Origin: Methanomicrobiales archaeon HGW-Methanomicrobiales-2
GTDB lineage: Archaea > Halobacteriota > Methanomicrobia > Methanomicrobiales > Methanoculleaceae
Length of the DNA stretch: 58,430 nucleotides
Reading direction: 5' to 3'
Assembly (NCBI GenBank): GCA_002839645.1
Contig: PGYL01000010.1
Span: 1-58,430, forward strand
Under the pieces are notes generated by a model. The model was not told where the DNA came from, made no database searches, and saw nothing but the letters and a program-made list of their open reading frames with translations. The translations under genes and the position numbers were made by a program. Below, in pieces: positions 801-19,080 of the stretch. Each line of letters opens with the position of its first letter. The stretch's first letter is position 1.

Positions 801-956
801 CCTCCCTGATCCGGCCTTCAGCAAGGGTCTGGAGTTTTCAGCATCGAGATCCGGTTGGTTGCCTGCCAGGACCCCCCGGTTGCAGCCTTCGCACTCCTTC
901 ACTTTCAGACCGCGCACGGCCTTCATTTATCTACTTCTTCTTCTCCAGACTCTCCT

Positions 957-2108
957 ATGACGCATTCCCCTCTTCTCCGAAGCGACGAGACCCTCTTCCG
1001 CGACCGTGACGTCTTTGAGTTCACGTTCGTCCCCGACCACCTCCACCACCGCGACGCCCAGGTCCGGGAACTCGCCTTCCTTATCCGGCCCGCCCTCCGG
1101 GGCGGGAGCGCCCTCTCCGCCGTCCTCCGCGGCCCGCCCGGGACCGGGAAGACCACCACCGTCCGCCGGATCTTTTGCGAGGTCGCCGAAGAGACGCAAC
1201 AGGTAATCCCGGTCTACGTCAACTGCCGCCACGACCACACCCCGCTCGCCGTCTACGGGAGCATCTTCAAACAGGTCTGCGGCTACCCGGCGCCGTCGGC
1301 CGGCCGGTACCTCGATGATGTTAAAGAGGGGATCGCCTCCCGGCTCCAGGACCGCGACGCCGCACTCGTCGTCTGCCTCGACGACGCGGACGACCTCATC
1401 CCGGCCGGAACCTACAACGCCCTCCTCTACCAGCTCCTCCGGCTCTACGAGAAGTGGGACGTCAGGAAGGCCGGGGTCTTTGCGGTCACAAGCGACCTCG
1501 GCCTGAATCTCTATGCTGAGGCCGATGCGAGCGTCCGGTCGGTCTTCCACCCGACCGAGATCACCTTCCTGCCCTACTCGAGGACCGAGATCCGCGAGAT
1601 CCTCGCCGACCGGACCCGGCAGGGCCTCTACCCCCGGGTGCTGCCGGCTCCGCTCATCGACCGGATCGCCGCTATCGCCGACAGCGAGCAGGACGTCCGG
1701 GTCGGGATCGATCTCATCCGGCAAGCAGCCCTCCGCGCGGAGAAGGACGGCCGCCGGCGCGTCACCCACGCCGACGTCACCGCCGCAGCCCGGGCGGTCA
1801 CGGCGCCGGCCCTCCGGACCCGTGCTACGGGGCTCTCGGAGGCCGAGCGGGCACTCGCCTGCTGGATCGCGGAACAGTCGCTTGCGGGCGCCGACACGGC
1901 GTCGGGGGCGGTCTTTGAAGCGGCACAGGAGTACCTCCCGGTCGGGAAGACGGCCTACCACGAGCACCTCAACGCCCTCGCAAAGGCCGGGATCGTCGAT
2001 CTTGTGCCCGGGAAGGGTCGGGGCAGGGAGGTCCGGCTCCGGTACGATGCCGGGGACGTGGCTACCGCCTGCAAAGCCCCGGACCAGACCTCCAAAATTC
2101 CGAACTGA
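957..2108 (+). CDS. Orc1/Cdc6-type replication initiation ATPase
   Basis: A 383-aa AAA+ protein. From the ATG at 957 the order is: N-terminal segment with DETLFRDRDVFEFTFVPDHLHHRD (split here by position 11-34), Walker A GPPGTGKT at residues 59-66, Walker B VVCLDDAD at 138-145, sensor and lid regions, and a C-terminal winged helix. In that domain, YHEHLNALAKAGIVDLV is the recognition-helix region. Length and order match archaeal Orc1/Cdc6, which bind origins and load the MCM helicase. The upstream in-frame GTG at 855 would only add a low-complexity leader, and a TATA-like CATTTATC lies about 30 bases before the ATG. The Walker B is LDDAD rather than the usual LDEID, hinting at a divergent plasmid- or virus-type paralogue. 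The primase-helicase gene downstream supports a replicon-specific role. Confidence 0.88.
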   Translation: MTHSPLLRSDETLFRDRDVFEFTFVPDHLHHRDAQVRELAFLIRPALRGGSALSAVLRGPPGTGKTTTVRRIFCEVAEETQQVIPVYVNCRHDHTPLAVYGSIFKQVCGYPAPSAGRYLDDVKEGIASRLQDRDAALVVCLDDADDLIPAGTYNALLYQLLRLYEKWDVRKAGVFAVTSDLGLNLYAEADASVRSVFHPTEITFLPYSRTEIREILADRTRQGLYPRVLPAPLIDRIAAIADSEQDVRVGIDLIRQAALRAEKDGRRRVTHADVTAAARAVTAPALRTRATGLSEAERALACWIAEQSLAGADTASGAVFEAAQEYLPVGKTAYHEHLNALAKAGIVDLVPGKGRGREVRLRYDAGDVATACKAPDQTSKIPN

Positions 2109-2593: not shown

Positions 2594-2931
2594 CCCCGGA
2601 GCCGGGCACCCTCGCCTGTACGGCAGCCGGCGGGCTCCTCATCCACGTCGAGGCTGAGCGTTACCGGATCGCGCCGGAAGATGTCAGAAGCCTGATCTTC
2701 TCCGGCCGCCCGGCGCCGGTCACATGCGAGCGAGTGCGACGCGGGGACGGTGTTGTCACGGGACAGACGACGATCGAGGGGCACGCGGCGGTCAACCCGG
2801 CCGGAAGAGCGGTGTTGGTCCACACCCGAACGGGATCGTTCATCATCCCGCTCGTCAGCCTCCGCCGGGTGGCCCGGGGGGAGGCGGCGAGCGCCCCCCT
2901 CTTCCCCCTCGTCCCGGAGATGAGCATATGA
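2590..2931 (+). CDS. Hypothetical protein in replication module
   Basis: A 113-aa protein starting MTPEPGTLACTAAGG. It starts in an ATGA overlap with the previous gene, and its TGA stop (2929-2931) overlaps the ATG of the primase gene at 2928, so three genes form one tightly coupled operon. The sequence is predicted to be mostly beta: GGLLIHVEAERYRIAPEDVRS, then RAVLVHTRTGSFIIPLVSLRRVARG. It lacks membrane segments and cysteine pairs. I do not recognise a family. Conserved placement directly before a primase-helicase suggests an accessory role in element replication. Confidence 0.6.
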   Translation: MTPEPGTLACTAAGGLLIHVEAERYRIAPEDVRSLIFSGRPAPVTCERVRRGDGVVTGQTTIEGHAAVNPAGRAVLVHTRTGSFIIPLVSLRRVARGEAASAPLFPLVPEMSI

Positions 2932-5787
2932 GTGAGGAGATCCGCCGGGCGGTGGGAGCCCTCGCCGACGGCGTAATCGAGGTCCGGGCGCTCGCCGACG
3001 GCATCACCCACTCCGGCTACTTCGACGACCACGAGGCACTCGCCCGGGCTGTCGAGGCCCTCGACGCCGACCCCTCGGTCGCCGGGATCTATGTCACCCT
3101 CAATGATGTGAACCCGGCGCTCCTCGCCCGGCGGGCGAACCGGATCAAGCTGCGCCTTTCCCGCAAGGATGCGACGACCGCCGACGCCGACATCCTCCGC
3201 CGGCGCTGGCTCCCGGTCGACATCGACCCGGTCCGGCCGAGCGGGGTCTCGTCGACCGACGCCGAGCACGACGCAGCGCTCGCTGCGGCGGAGCGGATCG
3301 CGATCTGGCTCGCCGAGCAGGGGTTCCCCTCTCCTATCAAAGCCGATTCCGGGAACGGGGCGCATCTTCTGTACCGGGTGGACCTCCAAAACGACGAACC
3401 CTCGACCGCGCTTGTGAAGGGCTGCCTTTCGACCCTCGATGCCCTCTTCTCAAACGAGGCTGTGACCGTCGATACTGCGAACCACAACGCCGCCCGGATC
3501 TGGAAACTCTACGGCACGCTCTCCCGGAAGGGTGACAATACCCCGGAGCGGCCGCACCGGCGAGCAAGGATCCTCGCTGTGCCTGACGAGATCGGTATTG
3601 TTCCCCTGGAACTGCTCCGGCACCTCGCGGGGCTCCTCCCCCGGGAAGAGCCTCCTCAGAGAAAAAACGGCCCCGGCATCGACCTTGCCGCCTGGCTGCT
3701 CGATCACGGCATCGCGGTCCGGTCGACGCGCCCCTGGCAGGGGGGGACCCTCTTCACCCTCGCCGGGTGCCCGTTCTCGGCGGCCCACAAGGACGGTGCC
3801 TTCGCCGTCCAGTTCGCGAACGGGGCCGTCTTTGCCGGCTGCCACCACCAAAGCTGCGGCGGGGGAGCGCAGCGCTGGCCGGAGCTCCGGGGGATGTACG
3901 AGAAGCAAAGGCCGGAGAGAAAAAAGGAGACGACGCAGAATGCAGAAAACCCGGGGGAGAAACCTGTCCCGGCCACCGATGAGCATCGCGAGCGTGCCCT
4001 TGCGATCCTGAAGGCCGGTGACCCCCTCGCCTTCCTCCTCGACACGTTCAACCGGAGCCACGTCGGCGACCGGACCGTCGCGGAGTGCCTGGTGATGTCC
4101 CTCGCCTCGCAGTCGGTCGAGAACACGAACGGCCTCCACGTCGCCGTTTCCGGCAACTCCGGGAAGGGGAAGACCCATGCCTGCACGACGATGCAGAGCC
4201 TCATTCCGGCGGCCTACAAACTCAAAGGCACTGTCTCCAATAAGGCGCTCTACTACGACGACGACCTCCGGGCCGGCACCGTTCTCCTCTTCGACGACGT
4301 CTCGCTCTCCGAGGACCTCCAGGAAGTCCTCAAATCCGCGGAAGCTCCGGGTCTGCACCATCCCGGCTCGGTGCGTCTGGTGGCTCGCCAAAGTCGAGGA
4401 TATCGGCGACGACCAGGTGATGAACCGGATGCTCACGGTCTGGATCGACGACTCCGTCGACCAGGACCGGCGGGTGCTCGAGCACATGAAGGAGGCCGAA
4501 GCGGTCGGGAAAAGCCCGGCAAAAGACGACATCCTCACCTGCCGGGCGATCTGGGAAGCTGTCAAGGCCGAGGTCCTCCCCGTCCGGATCCCGTTTGCCC
4601 GGCGGATAGGGTTCTCGACGACCCAGAACCGCCGGAACCCGGGCATGCTCTTTGACCTGATCAAGTGCCGGGCCCGGCTCTTCTCCCTCCAGCGCGACCG
4701 GGGGGAGGACGGGGCGGTGATCGCCCGGGAAGAAGACTTCACGGCGGCGGCCAAACTCTACGCCGCCCTCAACGGCGAAGCCGGCGGCCAGGAGACGAAG
4801 CTGACGAAGAACGAGGCGGCGGCGCTCGCGACGGTCGCCGGGATGGGCGTCGAGGTCTTCACCATCCGGCAGCTCCAGAGCGCTCTCGGTCTCTCCTACC
4901 AGAAGACCTACCGGCTACTCCACGGCTATATCAGCCGGGGGACGCCCTACTCCGGCCTCCTGGAGAAGTGCCCGGCGATCAGCCTCTACGATGCCACCGT
5001 AACGGAGAGCGATGGCGGTGGGGTCACGGTTCGCCGCCGGGAGCAGTACTTCACGTTCGATATCGAGGTCTACCGGGCCTGGAACGAGGGGGCCTCTGTC
5101 TGGCTGGACGACGACCCCGACGATGACAGCAATTTCAGCCGTTTTCAGCAGGTTTACAGCAACTGCTGTCAACAAGAAACCGGGCGGAACGGTGAAGATT
5201 CCGGGAATGACGACCAGGATCCTGATTTAGATCGATCCAGGTACGTACCTGTACAGCAGAATGAGAGAACAGAGAGCACGGGCGAGGATACTTCCGGTGA
5301 CGACCGGGGTGCCTGTGTTTCCCGCATTGCTGACATTCAAAAAGAGAAAGCCACGCATTGCGGCTCAAATGGTGAAAATACATCAATTCCGACGCCGTTG
5401 AATGACAGCAACTGCTGTCAACGTGCTGAAACCTGCTGTCACTCTCCACCTGCGGTCAACCCCGTCGACTACATCCCCCTCCCGGTGGAGAAGGACGAGC
5501 CCTGCCACATCTGCGGCCGGCGGCCGACGTCGTCGTTGAAGAGGGGCGGCGGGGGGAAGTATCTCTGCTACGACTGCCTGAAGAAGGGAAAGCGGCCAAA
5601 GACGCAGCCGCTCCCGGGGGTCCTCGACCACCGGACGTTTTGTCGGACGAAGGTCGAACTCGGCCGGTGCGACGTCTGCGGGACGGGGAAGGCGGTCTAC
5701 CGCTCGCGGGAGGCGCAGGCGAAGGTCTGCGAGGGGTGCTATGCGAGGCTGGTGCGGGAGTGGAATGCGGGGGCGGGGGTGCGGTGA
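2928..5787 (+). pseudogene. Primase-helicase of a mobile element, frameshifted
   Basis: Two reading frames together encode one large replication protein. Frame A (from ATG 2928) carries an AEP-type primase core: PVDIDPVRPSG, then KADSGNGAHLLYRVDL, then NHNAARIWKLYGT with RKGDNTPERPHR. A cysteine/His cluster (CHHQSCGG) follows, then a helicase/ATPase domain with Walker A SGNSGKGKT and Walker B VLLFDDV. At about 4,340 (after EVLKSA) homology moves to the +1 frame, continuing LRVCTIPARCVWWLAKVE to the stop at 5787. The second part has a winged-helix-like segment (FTIRQLQSALGLSYQKTYRLL) and two C-terminal CxxC pairs of zinc fingers (CHIC..CYDC and CDVC..CEGC). Family members usually have roughly 20 residues between the two joined motifs (recalled, not checked), so a small deletion caused the shift. 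The alternative is a sequencing error or programmed shift. Confidence 0.75.
5123..5441 (+). repeat. Palindromic TGACAGC/GCTGTCA repeats inside primase gene
   Basis: The 18-bp sequence ACAGCAACTGCTGTCAAC occurs identically at 5156-5173 and 5405-5422. The second copy is part of a perfect dyad TGACAGC-AACT-GCTGTCA (5403-5420). Half sites also occur at 5123-5132 (ATGACAGCAA) and 5433-5441 (CTGCTGTCA). They fall in the poorly structured, Cys-Cys-containing linker between the helicase domain and the zinc fingers (NCCQQ, NCCQR). Conservation at DNA level in a linker suggests a binding site for an initiator or regulator. Confidence 0.6.
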
Positions 5788-8724: not shown

Positions 8725-10521
8725 TTAGATCTTCTGGTAGTAATGCCGGATTTTGTCTGCTATGAGGCGTCTACGTGCGTATAGGAAATCCTCATAATCA
8801 CCGACATCCATCCCCTCTATCCCTCCCGGGATACAGTGTGCGGCAAAATTCGCCTTCATCTCATTCAGGCTGGTAATCCCGCCATATGCTGCTTGTCCAG
8901 CAACACACTGCTCCAGTATCTGAGTAAAGTAGTCTTTTGGAGCCTGATCTCCGACGGCGATGTTAATCTCACTCTGCATCATCACATAGTTCGCGATCTG
9001 ATTGTATTTGCCCTTCGTTAAATCGTGTTTTTTGAGGTAACTCCGGGGGAAGAGATGATGTATGTCACCGCGATGAGTTATCAGGTCATGGACAGTGATA
9101 TCCTTCGAGAGGAATCCCTTATCGTTGGCATGCACCTGGGCGGCAAGATACGCATAGAAGTACGGACTGGTTGCGACAGATGTATTCATTGCCTGAGGTA
9201 AGCCTGCATCCCAGAAAGCATCGGAGAGTTCTGCCTCCTCAAGGTCACGGAGATGGGCCTTCGCTCCACGCTCATTGATCTGCTTGATATCGAAACTCAT
9301 CGTGCTCTCCGCAGAGCCCGAATAGCGTCCGGTCAGTAAGGATATGACAAACCACCGCCGCACACACGATTCAATATCATTGGCACACTCATTCTGGCTG
9401 CGCATTGTCAGGTAGAGGGTGTATGCAAAGTTTAAGGCGTTTCGAGACCGTATCATCGAGCTTTCGATGAATCCTGCCGACCGTATGATCATCAAAAAGC
9501 GCTTGAAGTCCGTCTCGTTCATGAATCGCATGATGCCTTTCTCAAGCGTCCGGAATGACTGCTCCGCGATTGTCTCCTCATACTCGCGTGTCTCGAAATT
9601 TCTCCCCGAGAGGAGCGCAACCAGATCTCCCAGCTTCGCGCGCTGGAATTCCGACATGAAGGCCACACGAAGCATATCGGTATAGGAGGGGTCATACAGA
9701 TCATCATTTTCCTTGCGAAGCCAGCTCATCTTTGAGAAGTAGTCAGTGCTTGCAAACTCCGTATCCGACTCCTTGATCTGCTCATAGAATTCAGGTGCGA
9801 TTGCCAGGTGGCAGAAATAATCGATGCACTTCCGAAGAAGGTTGCCGCCGTAGACATCATTAGCCGCAATCTTCGACATGACGAAATCTGCCTGGCTTAA
9901 GACAGTCCCTTTCGAATTAATACGGATAAAAATCTCCGTTACCGTCTCGATATCCAGATCCGAATCTAATTCTATGAGCCCGATATGATTGTTAACGATC
10001 CCACGTAACAGCTCAATGCTTTCGTAGATCTCGTCTTGATCCGTACCTTCATTCTGCTCGCAGTATTCTTTGACAAGTCGAAGCATCTTCACTTCGGGTG
10101 AGAGTACATCCGTAATATTCGGAATCCATTGCTTATCTTTCTGGATGGCCGGATTAGTCACCTCGAATCTCTGCTCGATGGGATTGAAGGCAATGGTGAT
10201 ATTCATTTTTCTGTAGTCTTTGTTAACCACGCTCATACCCAGAAGTGCCGACATAAGCGCGGTAACCCGTTGCTGTCCGTCGATCAGAATCCGCTTTCCT
10301 TCAGATATGCTTCCATCCTTAAGACGGACATGAGGATTCCTCCACGCTATCAGGTATCCTACCGGGTAGCCCGTATAGAGCGAATCGATGAGGTCACGTA
10401 CTTGTGTGGCTGACCAGACAAATGGTCGCTGTATCTCCGGGATGGCGATCGCGCCCGTCTGCACCCAGGTCAGGAGTGCCTGAACTGAGTATTGGTTTAC
10501 TGCGTACTTCTGAATGGTCAT
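8725..10521 (-). CDS. GmrSD-like DUF262/DUF1524 nuclease
   Basis: A 598-aa protein. The N-terminal DUF262 domain is clear: [11 protein letters not shown] at residues 26-36 and [11 protein letters not shown] at 79-89. DUF262 is a ParB/Srx-like fold that binds or hydrolyses nucleotides in GmrS. The C-terminal part (from about residue 482) holds an HNH-type DUF1524 motif with [12 protein letters not shown] and, after about 15 residues, [15 protein letters not shown] single-chain GmrSD of this type is a type IV restriction enzyme that cuts modified DNA. Some DUF262 proteins instead accompany other defence systems. It is transcribed away from the hsdRSM operon, and its base composition is less GC-rich than the housekeeping genes, which fits transfer. 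Substrate modification is unknown. Confidence 0.82.
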
Positions 10522-13758: not shown

Positions 13759-14949
13759 GTGCTGAAGAAGGAGTTGCCTGATGGGTGGAGGTTGGTGAAA
13801 CTAAAAGAGGTCGCAAAAATTGATAATAAAGCCATTTCACCTGACGAAATGAGGGGAGAACTTCAGAGCTATATTGGCCTGGAGAACATCGAGAGCAATA
13901 CAGGCCGACTGGTAAGTTTTTCCGAAACACTTGGCGATGATATAAAGAGCAACAAATTTGGGTTCACAGAAGAGCACATATTGTACGGTAAATTAAGGCC
14001 ATATTTGAACAAAGTATATTTGCCTGATTTTGCTGGCGTATGCAGCACTGATATCATCCCCATTAAGCCGGACAGCGACCTGCTAATAAGAGAATTCTTG
14101 GGCTATTTTTTACGGACGCCTGAGTTCGTGAGCATGATTAACGCGAAATCGTCAGGTGCGAACCTTCCAAGAGTAAACCCAAAGGCTCTGTTAGACGTTT
14201 ATATCCCCCTCCCTCCTCTCGAAACCCAGCGCAAAATCGTCGCCATTCTTGAGAAGGCAGAGGCAACGCAGCGCCTGCGGGCAGAGGCGGATGTACTGAC
14301 ACAACAGTTGCTACAAAATGTCTACATGAGTATATTTGGAGATCCCATCTCTAATCCACAAAGTTGGGACATCGTGAAATTGGAGTGTGTCTGCAAAATT
14401 ATTACAGACGGTGAGCATGCAACACCAAAAAGATCACAATCAGGAATCTACCTATTGTCAGCGCGGAATATCAGAGATCACGAAATTGACTTATCAGACG
14501 TTGATTACATCGATGACGAGGAATATGATAGGATATCTAAGAGAATCGTGCCTCAAAACGGCGATGTACTGATATCTTGCTCTGGATCAGTTGGAAGAAT
14601 GTCAAGGGTTAAGGACGATATAAAATTCCAAATGGTAAGAAGTGTTGCCTTAATCAGGCCAGACAATCAAAAACTCAACTCAGCTTATCTGGAGTATACT
14701 TTTGATACAGCCTACCTAAAAATGCAAATTGCGCAGTCTGTTAACCAGTCCTCTCAAGCAAATCTTTTCCAGGGCAAAATTCGGGAATTGAAGATACCTA
14801 TTCCGCCGATGGATCTGCAACAAGTATTCGCAGAGATTGTTGAGAAATATGAACAATTAACTGAATCTCAGAGAATAACCTCTAGAAGAGCATTGACACT
14901 TTACAATTCACTGTTATCAAAAGCCTTCATCGGAGAGCTGATCGCATGA
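13759..14949 (+). CDS. hsdS: Type I restriction enzyme, specificity subunit
   Basis: A 396-aa HsdS with two target recognition domains. TRD1 spans about residues 5-150 and is followed by the conserved helix start IPLPPLETQRKIVAILEKAE. TRD2 spans about 190-340 and is followed by IPIPPMDLQQVFAEIVEKY. Each conserved pair forms the coiled coil that spaces the two half-sites. It starts at a GTG six bases after the hsdR stop, preceded by GGAG. The gene is distinctly AT-richer than hsdR and hsdM, as is common for TRDs exchanged by recombination. The target sequence cannot be read from the protein. The 3' end overlaps hsdM (ATGA). Confidence 0.92.
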   Translation: MLKKELPDGWRLVKLKEVAKIDNKAISPDEMRGELQSYIGLENIESNTGRLVSFSETLGDDIKSNKFGFTEEHILYGKLRPYLNKVYLPDFAGVCSTDIIPIKPDSDLLIREFLGYFLRTPEFVSMINAKSSGANLPRVNPKALLDVYIPLPPLETQRKIVAILEKAEATQRLRAEADVLTQQLLQNVYMSIFGDPISNPQSWDIVKLECVCKIITDGEHATPKRSQSGIYLLSARNIRDHEIDLSDVDYIDDEEYDRISKRIVPQNGDVLISCSGSVGRMSRVKDDIKFQMVRSVALIRPDNQKLNSAYLEYTFDTAYLKMQIAQSVNQSSQANLFQGKIRELKIPIPPMDLQQVFAEIVEKYEQLTESQRITSRRALTLYNSLLSKAFIGELIA

Positions 14950-16463
14950 GACTCGCATCCGACCTAAAATCAAAGATCGACACCCTCTGGGATCGCTTCT
15001 GGAGCGGCGGGATGTCAAACCCGCTTCAGTCCATCGAGCAGATGTCCTATCTCATCTTCATGAAGCGCCTCGAAGATACAGATGTCGTCGAGCAGAACCG
15101 GGCGCGGGCGCGGGGAGTGCCGTATACGTCAGTCTTCGAGGGGCATGAGGAGTGCCGGTGGTCGAGCTGGAAGCACTACCCTGCCGAGCAGATGCTTGTA
15201 CATGTCCGCGACAAGGTCTTTCCCTTCATCAAGGGTCTTCATAACGGTGAGAAAACACTCTTCGCCCGGCAGATGCGCGATGCCGTCTTCATGATCCCGA
15301 AGCCCTCGCTTCTCCAGGAAGCGGTCGCTCTCATCGATGAGATGAATATCACCGCCCAGAACCGCGACACTCAGGGCGATATCTACGAGTACCTTCTCTC
15401 GCAGCTCTCCACCGCCGGGAAGAACGGACAGTTCCGCACCCCGCGCCATATCATACGGATGATCGTCGAACTGGTCGATCCTGACATCACCGACCGTATC
15501 TGCGATCCGGCGTGCGGTACGGCTGGCTTCCTCATCAACTCGTATGAGCATATCATCCGGAAGTATACGAGCCCCGACCTCCTTGAGGTCGATGACGAGG
15601 GAGAATACCATAACCTCATCGGCGACAATATCACCGATCAGAAGCACTGGGAGAAGCTCTGGAGCGATACGTTCTACGGATTCGACTTCGACTCCACGAT
15701 GACCCGGATATCGCTCATGAACCTGATGCTGCACGGCATCAAAGCTCCTCACATCGAGCTCAAGGATACCCTCTCCAAGCGCTATAACGAAGAAGAGCGC
15801 TACACGGTCGTGCTCGCCAATCCTCCTTTCAAGGGGAGCATCGATAAGAGCGACATAAACGACAGTCTCTCGCTCGGCACGACAAAGACCGAGCTGCTCT
15901 TAGTCGAGCGGATGATACAACTCCTGACGATAGGCGGGAAATGCGGCGTTATCGTGCCTGATGGCGTGCTCTTCGGGAGCTCCAGGGCGCATAAGGAGCT
16001 TCGACGGATGCTCCTTGAGGAAAATCAACTGGAGGGTATCGTCTCCATGCCCTCCGGGATCTTCAAACCCTATGCGGGAGTCTCGACCGCCGTACTGATC
16101 TTCGTGAAGGGCGGAAAGACCGGGAAGGTCTGGTTCTACGACATGGAGGCGGATGGGTATTCGCTCGACGACAAGCGGACATTCATCGACGGCAAAGGAG
16201 ATATCCCGGATATTATCGAGCAATTCAGGGAGCGGAGAGACACAAACCCGACCGATCGGAAGGCGAAATGCTTCTATGTGCCGGTCGAGGAGATCCAGGC
16301 GAATAACTATGACCTCTCGATCTCTCGCTACAAGGAGATAGAATATGAGGAGGTCGATTACGAGCCTCCGGAAGTTATCATCGACAAGATCCAGGCGCTT
16401 GAGAGCCAGATTCAGCAGAATCTTGAGGTATTGAAGGAGATGCTCAAAGAGACTGAAAAATAA
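14946..16463 (+). CDS. hsdM: Type I restriction-modification N6-adenine methyltransferase
   Basis: A 505-aa HsdM. The N-terminal helical domain (LWDRFWSGGMSNPLQSIEQM) is followed by an SAM-dependent methyltransferase domain. Motif I is DPACGTAGF (187-195) and the catalytic motif IV is NPPF (292-295). The C-terminal helices (KIQALESQIQQNLEVLKEML) contact HsdS. The enzyme methylates adenine to protect host DNA from HsdR. The start codon lies in the hsdS stop (ATGA), so the stoichiometry is probably set by coupling. No lesions are seen, so this should be a working system. Confidence 0.94.
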   Translation: MRLASDLKSKIDTLWDRFWSGGMSNPLQSIEQMSYLIFMKRLEDTDVVEQNRARARGVPYTSVFEGHEECRWSSWKHYPAEQMLVHVRDKVFPFIKGLHNGEKTLFARQMRDAVFMIPKPSLLQEAVALIDEMNITAQNRDTQGDIYEYLLSQLSTAGKNGQFRTPRHIIRMIVELVDPDITDRICDPACGTAGFLINSYEHIIRKYTSPDLLEVDDEGEYHNLIGDNITDQKHWEKLWSDTFYGFDFDSTMTRISLMNLMLHGIKAPHIELKDTLSKRYNEEERYTVVLANPPFKGSIDKSDINDSLSLGTTKTELLLVERMIQLLTIGGKCGVIVPDGVLFGSSRAHKELRRMLLEENQLEGIVSMPSGIFKPYAGVSTAVLIFVKGGKTGKVWFYDMEADGYSLDDKRTFIDGKGDIPDIIEQFRERRDTNPTDRKAKCFYVPVEEIQANNYDLSISRYKEIEYEEVDYEPPEVIIDKIQALESQIQQNLEVLKEMLKETEK

Positions 16464-16613: not shown

Positions 16614-17714
16614 TCAGGAATCCGATCCCCCTCTTTCAACGGAGGTATCATCTCTTCTGGAAAATTGGGACAGCGTGGATTGATTCCTCATGGCATTCTT
16701 CCGGTAGTCCTCAAGCGCGAGTTTCTCTCCCTCCACGCTGGCTTTCTCATCAACCCATTTTTCAATAAATTTTGCATCGATATTCTCAAGAACGGCACGG
16801 AGTCTGGATCCCCGGCAGTTGAGCCGGATCGCATCGGCATCGACTTCATCGAATAGTTGATACTTCTGCCCGTATTCGAGGACAATTCGTAACTTCTCCG
16901 TCACCATCTGCTTCTTCTGATCTTCTGAAACGCCCAGAGAGACGTTATTCATCAAGGTCGAGAGCACTGCGTTTTTCTGGATGATCTTCGGATCTTCGAT
17001 ACCATCTTCGAACAGGTTCTTTCGGTAGCATTCCCCGATAATTGCCAGCTGGATGAGCCGGTAAGGGTTCGTCGAATAACAGTAAGGGAGTTCATACTGC
17101 TGGTGGAGGTCCTGATCGCCGAAACCCGCCTGCAGCATCTCATTTAATGCTGAATTCTCATGCGAGCATTCGAGGAGAAGTTGTATCAGTTGAGACCGCG
17201 GGGCATAAACCCAGACTTTCATCTGGTTGATATCGTATTTGGGATGCGGCTTCTGACCCTGTGCCTTCATGGACTCGATGATCTTCATCTTGTCCTTCTC
17301 GTTGATGCAGAGCACGTACTCGAACCGGTTGGGGTCAAGCTCGATGTCTATGGTATCCGAAAGGTAGTCCGTCTTTTCAAGGACCAGATCACGGGATAAT
17401 TCGACCTCTTTTAACGTCTTTCTTACATCGGTGATCGAGGATTTGCACTCGACGAAGATCGCACGGTTTTCGCCTTCGTTGTAGAGGAAGAGATCGAAAG
17501 TGTGATTTCCCTTTTTTGCGGAGCCGAACTCGATCAGGGGCTCTGCAAAATAAAATTCGTATCCGGATCTCTGTGAAAGGTTGGTCTGTGCGAAAGATTT
17601 TGCGCATTGTTTCACGAGAGTGTGGTGCTTTTTGTCTTCCTCAAGAGCATCACCGATCCGCTCTCGTGCCGAGGGTATGGAGTAAATTTTATATTTCTCT
17701 TTTAATTTATCCAA
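16614..17714 (-). CDS. PD-(D/E)XK nuclease-like protein, second gene of a cassette
   Basis: A 366-aa protein. Residues 50-95 contain a restriction-endonuclease-like signature: FYFAEPLIEFG, then HTFDLFLYNEG with D74, and IFVECKSS with E89-C-K91. The order E..D..ExK suggests a nuclease. The remaining 270 residues are helical and end in a charged tail (SQFSRRDDTSVERGG), with no domain I recognise. The start is uncertain: the frame is open back to about 17,797 (PREKEDFQAFYKRSPPEVRE) but has no ATG or GTG, so a TTG at 17714 is the formal choice. The upstream gene ends within about 80 bases on the same strand, suggesting co-transcription. Location directly beside hsdM and a GmrSD gene suggests defence, but the function is not established. 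Confidence 0.7.
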   Translation of the reverse strand: MDKLKEKYKIYSIPSARERIGDALEEDKKHHTLVKQCAKSFAQTNLSQRSGYEFYFAEPLIEFGSAKKGNHTFDLFLYNEGENRAIFVECKSSITDVRKTLKEVELSRDLVLEKTDYLSDTIDIELDPNRFEYVLCINEKDKMKIIESMKAQGQKPHPKYDINQMKVWVYAPRSQLIQLLLECSHENSALNEMLQAGFGDQDLHQQYELPYCYSTNPYRLIQLAIIGECYRKNLFEDGIEDPKIIQKNAVLSTLMNNVSLGVSEDQKKQMVTEKLRIVLEYGQKYQLFDEVDADAIRLNCRGSRLRAVLENIDAKFIEKWVDEKASVEGEKLALEDYRKNAMRNQSTLSQFSRRDDTSVERGGSDS

Positions 17715-17790
17715 TTCCTCGCGGACTTCAGGTGGAGAGCGCTTGTAGAACGCCTGAAAGTCTTCCTTCTCACGAGGAATATGGATGATA

Positions 17791-18900
17791 TCACCCTACG
17801 GTCGCCATATGATCGATATTTTCGACCACAAACTCGAAAAACCTCATGGATGTTCCGATGTCTATTTTCTCTACCGGGTAGACGTCGATCTTCTTGCCGG
17901 TAGTCGAGATGTCCAGGAGAGAACCCGTGTGCTCATCGATCAACCGGGCGGAGAAGAACATTGAACCCGGCAGCAGTACCTGTTCCAGTACAGTGAAGTT
18001 CCACTCCTCGCTGCACATCGCCTTGCAGAAGCGGGAAACGTCATCGTAGTGCATCTCCACCGGCACATCGATTGACCAGGGGATCTGAATGGCATTCGAG
18101 AATTGCCTGCGGGACCCGACCTTGCTGATGGAATATCCCGACTCTCCGATTGCCCCTCTCACGTTTTCAAGCCGTGAAACGACGTCCTCGATTATCTTGA
18201 AGATGCCGGCGAAGTGTCCGTGACGCAGTGTTATGATTCCCTTATTGTCGATGCGGAATGCGATGCCGTTCGGGAGCTGGACCTCAAGAATCTTTGGTAG
18301 CACACCGTAGTAGAATTCCATCTCCTCAAGCGTGTGTTTTCCGTCGTTCCCCCTGTACTGGATGCCTCTCTCGACATGGGGCCGGAACTCGGAGTGAATG
18401 TCAGTGTTGGGGCTCCTCTTCGCAGAGAAATAGGTTATGATCATGTCCGGGTACTCCCGGACGAGGTTATCTTTGATCTCCTTCATCACCTTAGGGGCTA
18501 TCCAGAGATTCGATATCTCCTTTGTACGGTTGATGTAAGTGAAGAGGATGTCAGGTATCTCATTGGTTTTCTTTGCATCCGTGATGAAGAGTGGGACATT
18601 GTTCCTGTCGTCGAAGAACGTATAAATATAAATCCGTTTACCCTGGGATTCCTTCGAGAGGAGGAGCAGTTTTCCTGCCCTCTTATCGATGGAGAAATGG
18701 AAGTTTTTGAGGCTCTCGACGAACTGGTCGATGTTCTGGAACATCGACAGCGTTGCAACTATGTGGAGATTACTGTTGATCTGGTCGTCTCCTCGCTCAC
18801 ATTCAAGGTACTGGATCAGCTCCTGAATGTCGTCGAAGTCTCTATCAGCTCTGATGAGCGAAGGGAGGTTCAAAGTATCACATCCCCGGTTAATTTCCAT
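17791..18900 (-). CDS. Unrecognised 369-aa protein, first gene of a cassette
   Basis: I do not recognise this family. The protein is mixed alpha/beta with no membrane segments and no metal-binding Cys/His clusters. Notable stretches are SNLHIVATLSMFQNIDQFVE, then GKRIYIYTFFDDRNNVPLFI, IITLRHGHFAGIFKIIEDV and TSMRFFEFVVENIDHM. It starts at an ATG at 18900 in a region with AT-rich sequence upstream. It lies at the island border next to tRNA-Ala and is followed on the same strand by the PD-(D/E)XK gene, so the two probably act together. The strand-rich middle section could be a nucleic-acid or ligand sensor, but that is a guess. Base composition is lower in GC than the chromosomal genes on the other side of the tRNA. 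Confidence 0.65.
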   Translation of the reverse strand: MEINRGCDTLNLPSLIRADRDFDDIQELIQYLECERGDDQINSNLHIVATLSMFQNIDQFVESLKNFHFSIDKRAGKLLLLSKESQGKRIYIYTFFDDRNNVPLFITDAKKTNEIPDILFTYINRTKEISNLWIAPKVMKEIKDNLVREYPDMIITYFSAKRSPNTDIHSEFRPHVERGIQYRGNDGKHTLEEMEFYYGVLPKILEVQLPNGIAFRIDNKGIITLRHGHFAGIFKIIEDVVSRLENVRGAIGESGYSISKVGSRRQFSNAIQIPWSIDVPVEMHYDDVSRFCKAMCSEEWNFTVLEQVLLPGSMFFSARLIDEHTGSLLDISTTGKKIDVYPVEKIDIGTSMRFFEFVVENIDHMATVG

Positions 18901-19008
18901 TAAGTTTCATGTAGATTTAGATGTTTCTTATTTGAACCTGATGCTATAGGTGGAACGTGAAGGTATCTTGAGGATTGCCAGATATCAAGTCAATCTGAAA
19001 AACAGTAT

Positions 19009-19080
19009 GGACCGAGCGGGAATTGAACCCGCGGCCTCTTCCATGCCAAGGAAGCGATCTACCCCTGATCTATCGGCCCC
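19009..19080 (-). tRNA. tRNA-Ala (anticodon GGC)
   Basis: On the minus strand the 72 bases fold into a full cloverleaf. The acceptor is GGGCCGA/TCGGTCC, the D stem GATC/GATC, and the anticodon stem CTTCC/GGAAG with loop TTGGCAT. The T arm is GCGGG-TTCAATT-CCCGC and the discriminator is A. No CCA is encoded and no intron is present. A TATA-like CTTATTAT lies on the minus strand at 19118-19111, about 31 bases before the tRNA. The 3' end faces the accessory region to the left, so it is a likely attachment site for the island. Confidence 0.95.

What the first reader, a model, noticed from the sequence alone, without database searches (positions are those of the whole stretch)
16614..18900. Two-gene cassette beside type I R-M: unrecognised 369-aa protein plus PD-(D/E)XK nuclease-like protein
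Seen: two genes on the minus strand, close together, at the island edge between hsdM and tRNA-Ala. The second carries the E..D..E-x-K pattern (D74, E89-C-K91) of restriction-type nucleases. The first matches no family I know. Known: such nuclease plus unknown-sensor pairs in defence islands are often new antiviral systems. Inference: the pair is a candidate undescribed defence module, with the nuclease as effector.
Basis: partly seen in the sequence, partly recalled or inferred. Interest (0 to 1): 0.72.

Follow-up and report, generated by a model that had tools for sequence, protein, structure and literature searches.

The report
Archaeal two-gene nuclease-partner module
Two unnamed genes next to a restriction system in a methane-making archaeon travel together across other archaea and in a virus, look like an undescribed tool in the conflict between cells and viruses, and stay under selection in many lineages after the nuclease half has lost its cutting site.

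Summary
In Pfam, PADLOC and NCBIfam, A, B and 22 relatives of each give only weak hits (best E 0.0005). A matches phrog_24372, function unknown. The pair is a unit: among 392 phylum genomes the same 18 carry full-length A and B, always A then B. In 82 of 85 fetched loci A has B directly downstream; the other three hold A fragments. A and B tree distances correlate (r 0.91), and both genes show purifying selection. B is modelled as a PD-(D/E)XK-like domain plus winged helix; A may have a TBP-like N-terminal domain (weak). Pairs lie near adenine methyltransferases more often than expected; one is carried by a pleolipovirus. Best reading: a mobile conflict module whose core is A, with B as nuclease effector in the window's lineage and as a non-cutting partner elsewhere. 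The function is inferred, not shown.

The parts
17791..18900 (-). gene A, 369 aa, no named family; possible TBP-like N-terminal domain
16614..17795 (-). gene B, open frame of 393 codons: long N-terminal helix, PD-(D/E)XK-like domain, winged-helix-like domain, C-terminal helix
17178..17582 (-). B residues 72-206, PD-(D/E)XK-like domain
   Evidence: AlphaFold2 model and structure comparison
17493..17495 (-).
17442..17450 (-).
16773..17075 (-). B residues 241-341, winged-helix-like domain
18343..18369 (-). A residues R178..Y182..D186; R178 and D186 identical in 72 of 72 distinct A proteins, Y182 in 70
   Evidence: one search counts two residues more
17789..17799 (-). junction where the A stop codon overlaps the B open frame
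19008..19079 (-). tRNA-Ala (GGC), conserved edge of the variable island

Best explanation
A and B are one mobile two-gene module of archaeal virus-host or element-element conflict. Inferred steps: A is the conserved core and recognises a nucleic acid or its state, possibly through TBP-like domains and the invariant R178/Y182/D186 cluster. B is a DNA-binding partner with long helices, a PD-(D/E)XK-like domain and a winged helix. In the window's lineage, with D101/E116/K118 intact, B cuts the DNA that A has recognised. In virus-borne and some plasmid-borne relatives B has lost the cutting site, and the pair acts by binding or blocking, for instance as superinfection exclusion, or interferes with active pairs. 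Shown here: obligate pairing, joint evolution, purifying selection, the predicted fold of B, loss of the site in several clades, and the genomic settings.
For: Pairing: the same 18 of 392 genomes carry full-length A and B, adjacent in every one; 82 of 85 loci have A then B on one strand, the other 3 hold A fragments. Joint evolution: patristic r 0.91 over 2556 pairs, 0 of 1000 permutations as high. Selection: omega 0.03-0.21 for A and 0.05-0.41 for B in the 10 of 18 compared pairs with estimable dS, four dead-site pairs among them. B model pLDDT 78.7; structural matches XisH-type proteins Z 8.6-8.7, AF2093 Z 8.2, Upx Z 9.4, AF2093 Foldseek E 0.013; that these are PD-(D/E)XK folds is recalled, not from a call. 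Setting: 7 of 28 pairs on contigs that hold an N6_Mtase lie within 10 kb of one, 2.0 expected (P 0.001; P 0.009-0.02 with the window's genus counted once). Defence-type genes within 6 kb of 17 of 75 pairs against 1 of 55 control regions. Patchy spread: 58 of 391 genomes of the haloarchaeal class, two of them by fragments only; variable site at tRNA-Ala. Carried by pleolipovirus Harhisp1 and beside pleolipovirus-type genes in other loci.
Against: No function was tested. 31 of 72 B proteins lack intact D-ExK. By the seeds used, 58 of 75 pairs have no defence-type neighbour, and those seeds came from case loci, so the 17/75 figure favours the cases despite leave-one-out. The A model is poor (pLDDT 53.9) and its matches are near the noise. 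B's structural matches are also modest: the tool warns that Z under 8 is common by chance. The link of a lost site with viral neighbours (13/31 against 2/41) is clade-bound; only 3 independent contrasts exist on supported branches, so it cannot be tested.
Confidence: 0.52

Rival explanations
1. Element housekeeping: A and B help replicate, segregate or stabilise the mobile element that carries them. A would be a TBP-fold DNA binder (the Rep_trans fold is TBP-like), B a DNA-binding partner whose nuclease site is optional.
For: In Harhisp1 the pair lies beside the Orc1-type replication gene. Orc1/Cdc6 genes or a DUF7845 protein neighbour several pairs. The window's island holds an ORF at 855-2108 that I read as Cdc6/Orc-like (not scanned), with relatives in the islands of L250, L260 and L261. 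Loss of cutting in 31 of 72 B proteins is easy to explain. PMC13107129 (passages) describes TBP-fold replication initiators in pleolipoviruses.
Against: Many pairs have no replicon gene within 6 kb by the seeds used. No A protein of 23 matched DUF7845 at E up to 0.1. Betapleolipoviruses have their own initiator.
Confidence: 0.2
2. Toxin-antitoxin or addiction pair, B a DNA-damaging toxin held in check by A.
For: Two genes with abutting or overlapping ends; nuclease-like fold; carriage on plasmids and a virus. Four loci keep A beside a broken or cut B (L024/L116, L113, L131, L148), as a retained antitoxin might.
Against: A is as large as B and better conserved. 31 of 72 B proteins have lost the site, and four dead-site pairs tested are still under purifying selection.
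Confidence: 0.12
3. DNA repair or recombination module acting with UvrD-type helicase-nucleases and SMC proteins.
For: UvrD-type and PDDEXK_1 genes flank some members of one haloarchaeal clade, one with an SMC-like ATPase. The best Foldseek hit of A is RdgC, E 0.0024.
Against: Patchy carriage, 58 of 391 genomes; carriage by a virus; such neighbours found in only 5 of 75 loci by the seeds.
Confidence: 0.1
4. Accessory subunits of the adjacent type I R-M system.
For: Adjacent in the window and in two relatives.
Against: G010 has the pair at the same tRNA with no hsdRSM match in 16.6 kb. With the window's own R-M genes as seeds, only L028, L070 and, weakly, L069 and L121 among the other 74 loci have a type I match.
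Confidence: 0.03

Closest known systems
phrog_24372 (gene A of pleolipovirus Harhisp1, HarHp1_105), function unknown
   Same: A matches the family over residues 19-366, E 1.4e-65; the Harhisp1 gene is a relative (E 3e-43) and is also followed by a B homologue. That HarHp1_105 is in this PHROG is inferred
   Different: the viral B has lost D-ExK; the window's B keeps it
PD-(D/E)XK-type nucleases: XisH-type proteins, AF2093, NucS/EndoMS, Lamassu LmuA, Upx C-terminal part (fold class recalled)
   Same: core fold in the model and D..E-x-K
   Different: no sequence-level family match (best HSDR_N_2, E 0.0066 in 3 of 23); B adds a winged helix and long terminal helices; site lost in 31 of 72 relatives
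TBP-fold DNA binders: RdgC, CENP-L/Iml3, TBP
   Same: Foldseek lists RdgC (E 0.0024) and TBP (E 0.006 and up); VIA-align lists CENP-L Z 8.4, rmsd 5.4, 189 aligned, and RdgC Z 6.7
   Different: low-confidence model and no sequence similarity; a lead only
Hachiman HamAB, a nuclease-plus-sensor defence pair (start of abstract in search listing)
   Same: two genes, one a nuclease effector
   Different: its sensor is a helicase; A has no helicase match, and no Hachiman model was hit

Membership tests
PD-(D/E)XK nuclease superfamily (gene B) | D..E-x-K motif on the core fold | tested here: met
   D101, E116, K118 in the window and in 41 of 72 distinct B proteins; model pLDDT 78.7 with modest structural matches
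PD-(D/E)XK nuclease superfamily (gene B) | motif conserved across homologues | tested here: not met
   31 of 72 lack it, mostly as whole clades
PD-(D/E)XK nuclease superfamily (gene B) | metal-dependent DNA cleavage | not testable with these tools
   needs protein
Known defence systems in PADLOC-DB 2.0.0 | match to a system protein model | tested here: not met
   46 A and B members at E <= 0.01: only two HEC-02B models (4 and 1 members, best E 0.0005) and Cas11b (1 member, 0.0021). With PDLC04221, 4 of 18 genomes had a short match (37-44 codons, E 0.03-0.33) inside B
Type I restriction-modification accessory | co-occurrence with hsdRSM | tested here: not met
   G010 has A+B with no hsdRSM match in 16.6 kb; few other loci have type I matches
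Rep-Arvir replication initiators (DUF7845) | DUF7845 domain | tested here: not met
   none of 23 A and 23 B proteins matched PF25227 at E <= 0.1, while a neighbour in L065 did, E 3.3e-106
TBP-like fold (gene A) | beta-alpha-beta4-alpha repeats | tested here: inconclusive
   order of elements fits for residues 45-125 of the model, but mean pLDDT is 53.9 and profile comparison found no internal repeats
Toxin-antitoxin pair | one gene toxic alone and neutralised by the other | not testable with these tools
   needs expression

The most novel reading that the evidence does not exclude
A new archaeal immune or counter-immune system whose core is A, a protein family of unknown function with an invariant R-Y-D site. 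B is a partner of variable activity: nuclease-active in host islands, repeatedly turned into a dead nuclease in pleolipoviruses and related elements, which use the pair as a non-cutting exclusion device or as a dominant-negative decoy against the host's active pairs.
Probability: 0.25. Interest if true: 0.85.

Novelty: new variant of a known kind. Interest (0 to 1): 0.62.

Why it matters
Archaeal defence repertoires look thin compared with those of bacteria, and the authors of PMC12988326 call for archaea-adapted discovery (passages). This module was found in 58 of 391 genomes of one haloarchaeal class and has no model in PADLOC 2.0.0, NCBIfam or Pfam. If it is defence, it is a widespread archaeal system with a test bed at hand. 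The repeated loss of a nuclease site while the gene stays under selection makes a general question testable: what a nuclease fold does after it stops cutting.

Tried and rejected
Accessory of type I R-M: rejected. HEC-02 membership: rejected as a short match around the PD-(D/E)XK motif. Internal repeats in A by profile comparison: no signal. Profiles of A and B against PDB sequences: nothing, best E 0.91 and 0.28. Eight scans of viral contigs found no relative; they need exact short motifs, so this is weak evidence of absence. Gene B by tblastn in phages and plasmids with the window query: no match, though profile search finds B beside A there. Bacterial relatives: none among plasmid records; bacterial chromosomes were tested only through the motif scan, whose seven confirmed loci are archaeal. 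Phylogenetic test of lost site against viral or defence neighbours: not possible, 3 independent contrasts. Literature: eight searches and passages of seven papers gave no description of the pair; the library holds no bioRxiv preprints and lacks most subscription papers. One of three fold-search jobs without a cap of their own was left unused.

Full report
WHAT IS THERE. Gene A (17791-18900, minus) and gene B (open frame 16614-17795, minus) lie between hsdM (14946-16463, plus) and tRNA-Ala (19008-19079, minus). Pfam matches mark the neighbours as HsdR, HsdS, HsdM and a GmrSD-type protein. For A and B themselves the hits are weak: Pfam best E 0.08, NCBIfam 0.1, PADLOC none. A matches phrog_24372, E 1.4e-65, function unknown. 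Over 23 A and 23 B relatives the best Pfam E-values are 0.01 and 0.006. The genus is Methanoculleus by inference: two same-genus genomes (G006, G010) have contigs of the same length as named Methanoculleus records.

START OF B. Methanogen homologues align upstream of the annotated TTG. In six of the ten methanogen loci (window, L027, L028, L029, L030, L070) the first ATG, GTG or TTG of the B frame lies well inside the conserved part, at residue 28 in the window and at 61 in L027. L031 starts B with a GTG that overlaps the A stop; the window and its three close relatives have a GTG there that is one base out of frame (my reading of the junctions). How B is started is unexplained.

THE PAIR IS A UNIT. 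Among 199 relatives A was found in 11 and B in 9 genomes. All 9 B genes adjoin A; the two other A hits are a contig-end fragment (G004) and a weak partial hit (G155, E 4e-4). Among 392 phylum genomes A was found in 19: 18 full length and a fragment (G499). B was found in 24: the same 18 full length, two fragments with a stop (G299, G274) and four short hits of 47-57 model positions around the nuclease motif. Of 85 loci examined, 82 have A followed by B on the same strand; the other three hold only A fragments (L010 at a contig end, L067, L160). Among the 82, L033 is fragmentary, B is in pieces in L024, L116, L113 and L131 and short in L148, and a few loci are copies of one record. Distances in the A and B trees correlate with r 0.91; none of 1000 permutations reached it.

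SPREAD. The pair occurs in Methanoculleus, Methanofollis, Methanothrix and Methanoregula records (titles), in 58 of 391 genomes of the class of G475, on haloarchaeal plasmids and in the pleolipovirus Harhisp1. G475 is taken as Halorubrum lacusprofundi because its contig has the length of pHLAC01, so the class is Halobacteria by inference; in two of the 58 (G499, G723) only fragments were seen. Harhisp1 is an induced provirus integrated at a tRNA-Ala of Haloarcula hispanica (PMC7911831, passages). G732 has four copies, two of them on contigs of 20.3 and 17.0 kb, with 10-14 kb of nearly identical surroundings; one copy lies beside a spike-like gene (L110). In the window's genus 27 of 35 genomes have the gene before the tRNA. 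I took 15 stretches from these and compared them with the window, L028 and L070: all 18 have that gene and the tRNA-Ala, and the pair follows in 4 (window, G006, G019, G010), so this is a variable site.

STRUCTURE. B: AlphaFold2 with 8 sequences, mean pLDDT 78.7. It shows a long N-terminal helix (22-68), a core at about 72-206, a winged-helix-like part at about 241-341 and a long C-terminal helix. Best VIA-align matches of the core are Upx (Z 9.4), XisH-type proteins (8.6-8.7), AF2093 (8.2) and BsmI (8.0), with NucS/EndoMS and LmuA at 7.1-7.4; Foldseek's best is AF2093, E 0.013, none under 0.001. A: mean pLDDT 53.9, with about residues 50-110 at 74-90. Foldseek's best is RdgC, E 0.0024, then weak TBP and unrelated hits. 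VIA-align gives CENP-L Z 8.4 with rmsd 5.4 over 189 residues, and KA1 domains near Z 6 with rmsd 2.6 over 85-89 residues. The tool warns that Z under 8 is common, so the TBP-like reading of A is a lead only. In 72 distinct A proteins T107, R178, D186, G199, G221 and P342 are identical in all, and Y182 in 70; the best B column reaches 70 of 72.

THE NUCLEASE SITE IS OFTEN LOST. Of 72 distinct B proteins 41 have D, E and K at the three positions and 31 do not. The state changes 5 times on the A tree and 4 times on the B tree, with 3 and 4 forced by starred branches (quick searches, with long branches flagged by the tool). Some of the 31 may still be active: three have E-x-E and one has S-x-K, where a ligand could have moved. 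The rest, with pairs such as S-E, C-E, V-L or L-V at the E and K positions, are unlikely to cut in the usual way (inference). Omega is 0.03-0.21 for A and 0.05-0.41 for B in the 10 of 18 pairs with estimable dS, four of which have a lost site; in 8 pairs dS was saturated, and one of the 10 has dS above 2.5 (on stop-to-stop frames).

SETTING. I used 36 seed proteins from case loci and from Harhisp1, E up to 1e-5, and did not score a locus by its own seeds; the one exception, a transposase seed of L025 scored on L055, is not in the defence count. Defence-type genes lie within 6 kb of 17 of 75 pairs and in 1 of 55 control regions of 14 kb on the same contigs (Fisher P 3e-4). The seeds were chosen from case neighbourhoods, which favours the cases; some matches are weak, and related loci share islands (four McrBC loci, for example). 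A less biased test used Pfam N6_Mtase in 59 genomes: 7 of 28 pairs on contigs that hold such a gene lie within 10 kb of one, with 2.0 expected from random places on the same contigs (P 0.001; with two of the three Methanoculleus genomes dropped, 5 observed against 1.4-1.8 expected, P 0.009-0.02). Pleolipovirus-type genes or integrases lie near 13 of 31 pairs with lost site and 2 of 41 with intact site; L021, the virus itself, was added by hand, and L059's Pfam integrase is not counted. Pentapeptide-repeat neighbours by the seeds are 9 of 31 against 0 of 41, but Pfam shows one 1.8 kb from the intact-site pair in L069, which the seeds missed. These contrasts follow clades: three independent comparisons exist on supported branches, so they are descriptions, not tests.

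MECHANISM. Shown: obligate pairing, co-evolution, selection, predicted nuclease-like and winged-helix-like parts of B, repeated loss of the site, and an association with methyltransferase loci and viral elements. Inferred: that A recognises something on invading nucleic acid, that B binds DNA and, where the site is intact, cuts it, and that dead-site pairs act by binding or interference. A holds the invariant residues, four loci keep A beside a broken or cut B, and no full-length B was found without A in 392 genomes; this suggests that A is the core. I put 0.52 on the conflict reading in this form, 0.2 on element housekeeping, and less on toxin-antitoxin or repair.

LITERATURE (passages only). 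[quoted passage not shown] PMC4158269: PD-(D/E)XK families listed in archaeal dark matter as virus or plasmid associated; I could not tell whether B is among its arCOGs. PMC13107129: TBP-fold DUF7845 initiators in pleolipoviruses; A does not match DUF7845. PMC10544981: the test strain. PMC11078007 and PMC10599561: no mention of the pair in the passages shown.

VERDICT.

Noticed in passing
window 13759-14949 and L028, L070: HsdS is 33% or 59% identical to its counterparts in two relatives while HsdM and HsdR are 95-97% identical, so the specificity subunit appears to be exchanged.
   Followed up: partly
window 17714-17799; L027, L028, L029, L030, L070: In six of ten methanogen loci the B frame has no ATG, GTG or TTG ahead of its conserved N-terminal part.
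   Followed up: partly
L022, L127, L134, L145, L066, L154, L155, L156, L021; also L069: A pentapeptide-repeat protein lies near the pair in nine lost-site loci, eight of them in one clade of nine, and near one intact-site pair, L069.
   Followed up: partly
L056, L057, L058, L117, L024: UvrD-type helicase genes, most with a PDDEXK_1 nuclease, flank the pair in some members of one haloarchaeal clade; L056 also has an SMC-like ATPase. This may be a further unnamed system.
   Followed up: no
L110-L113 (G732): Four near-identical copies of a 10-14 kb element with A+B, two on small contigs; the B of one copy (L113) is in pieces.
   Followed up: partly
window 2724-5787: Two overlapping ORFs in different frames (643 and 536 aa) look like one gene with a frameshift (my reading).
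   Followed up: no
window 855-2108; L250, L260, L261: An ORF that I read as Cdc6/Orc-like lies in the same island; relatives lie in the tRNA-Ala islands of other genomes of the genus.
   Followed up: no
window 8725-10521: A GmrSD N-terminal-domain protein lies beside the type I R-M operon, so the island holds several defence-type genes.
   Followed up: no
L065:2457-4610: A DUF7845 protein (Rep-Arvir type by PMC13107129) lies within 2 kb of an intact-site pair.
   Followed up: no
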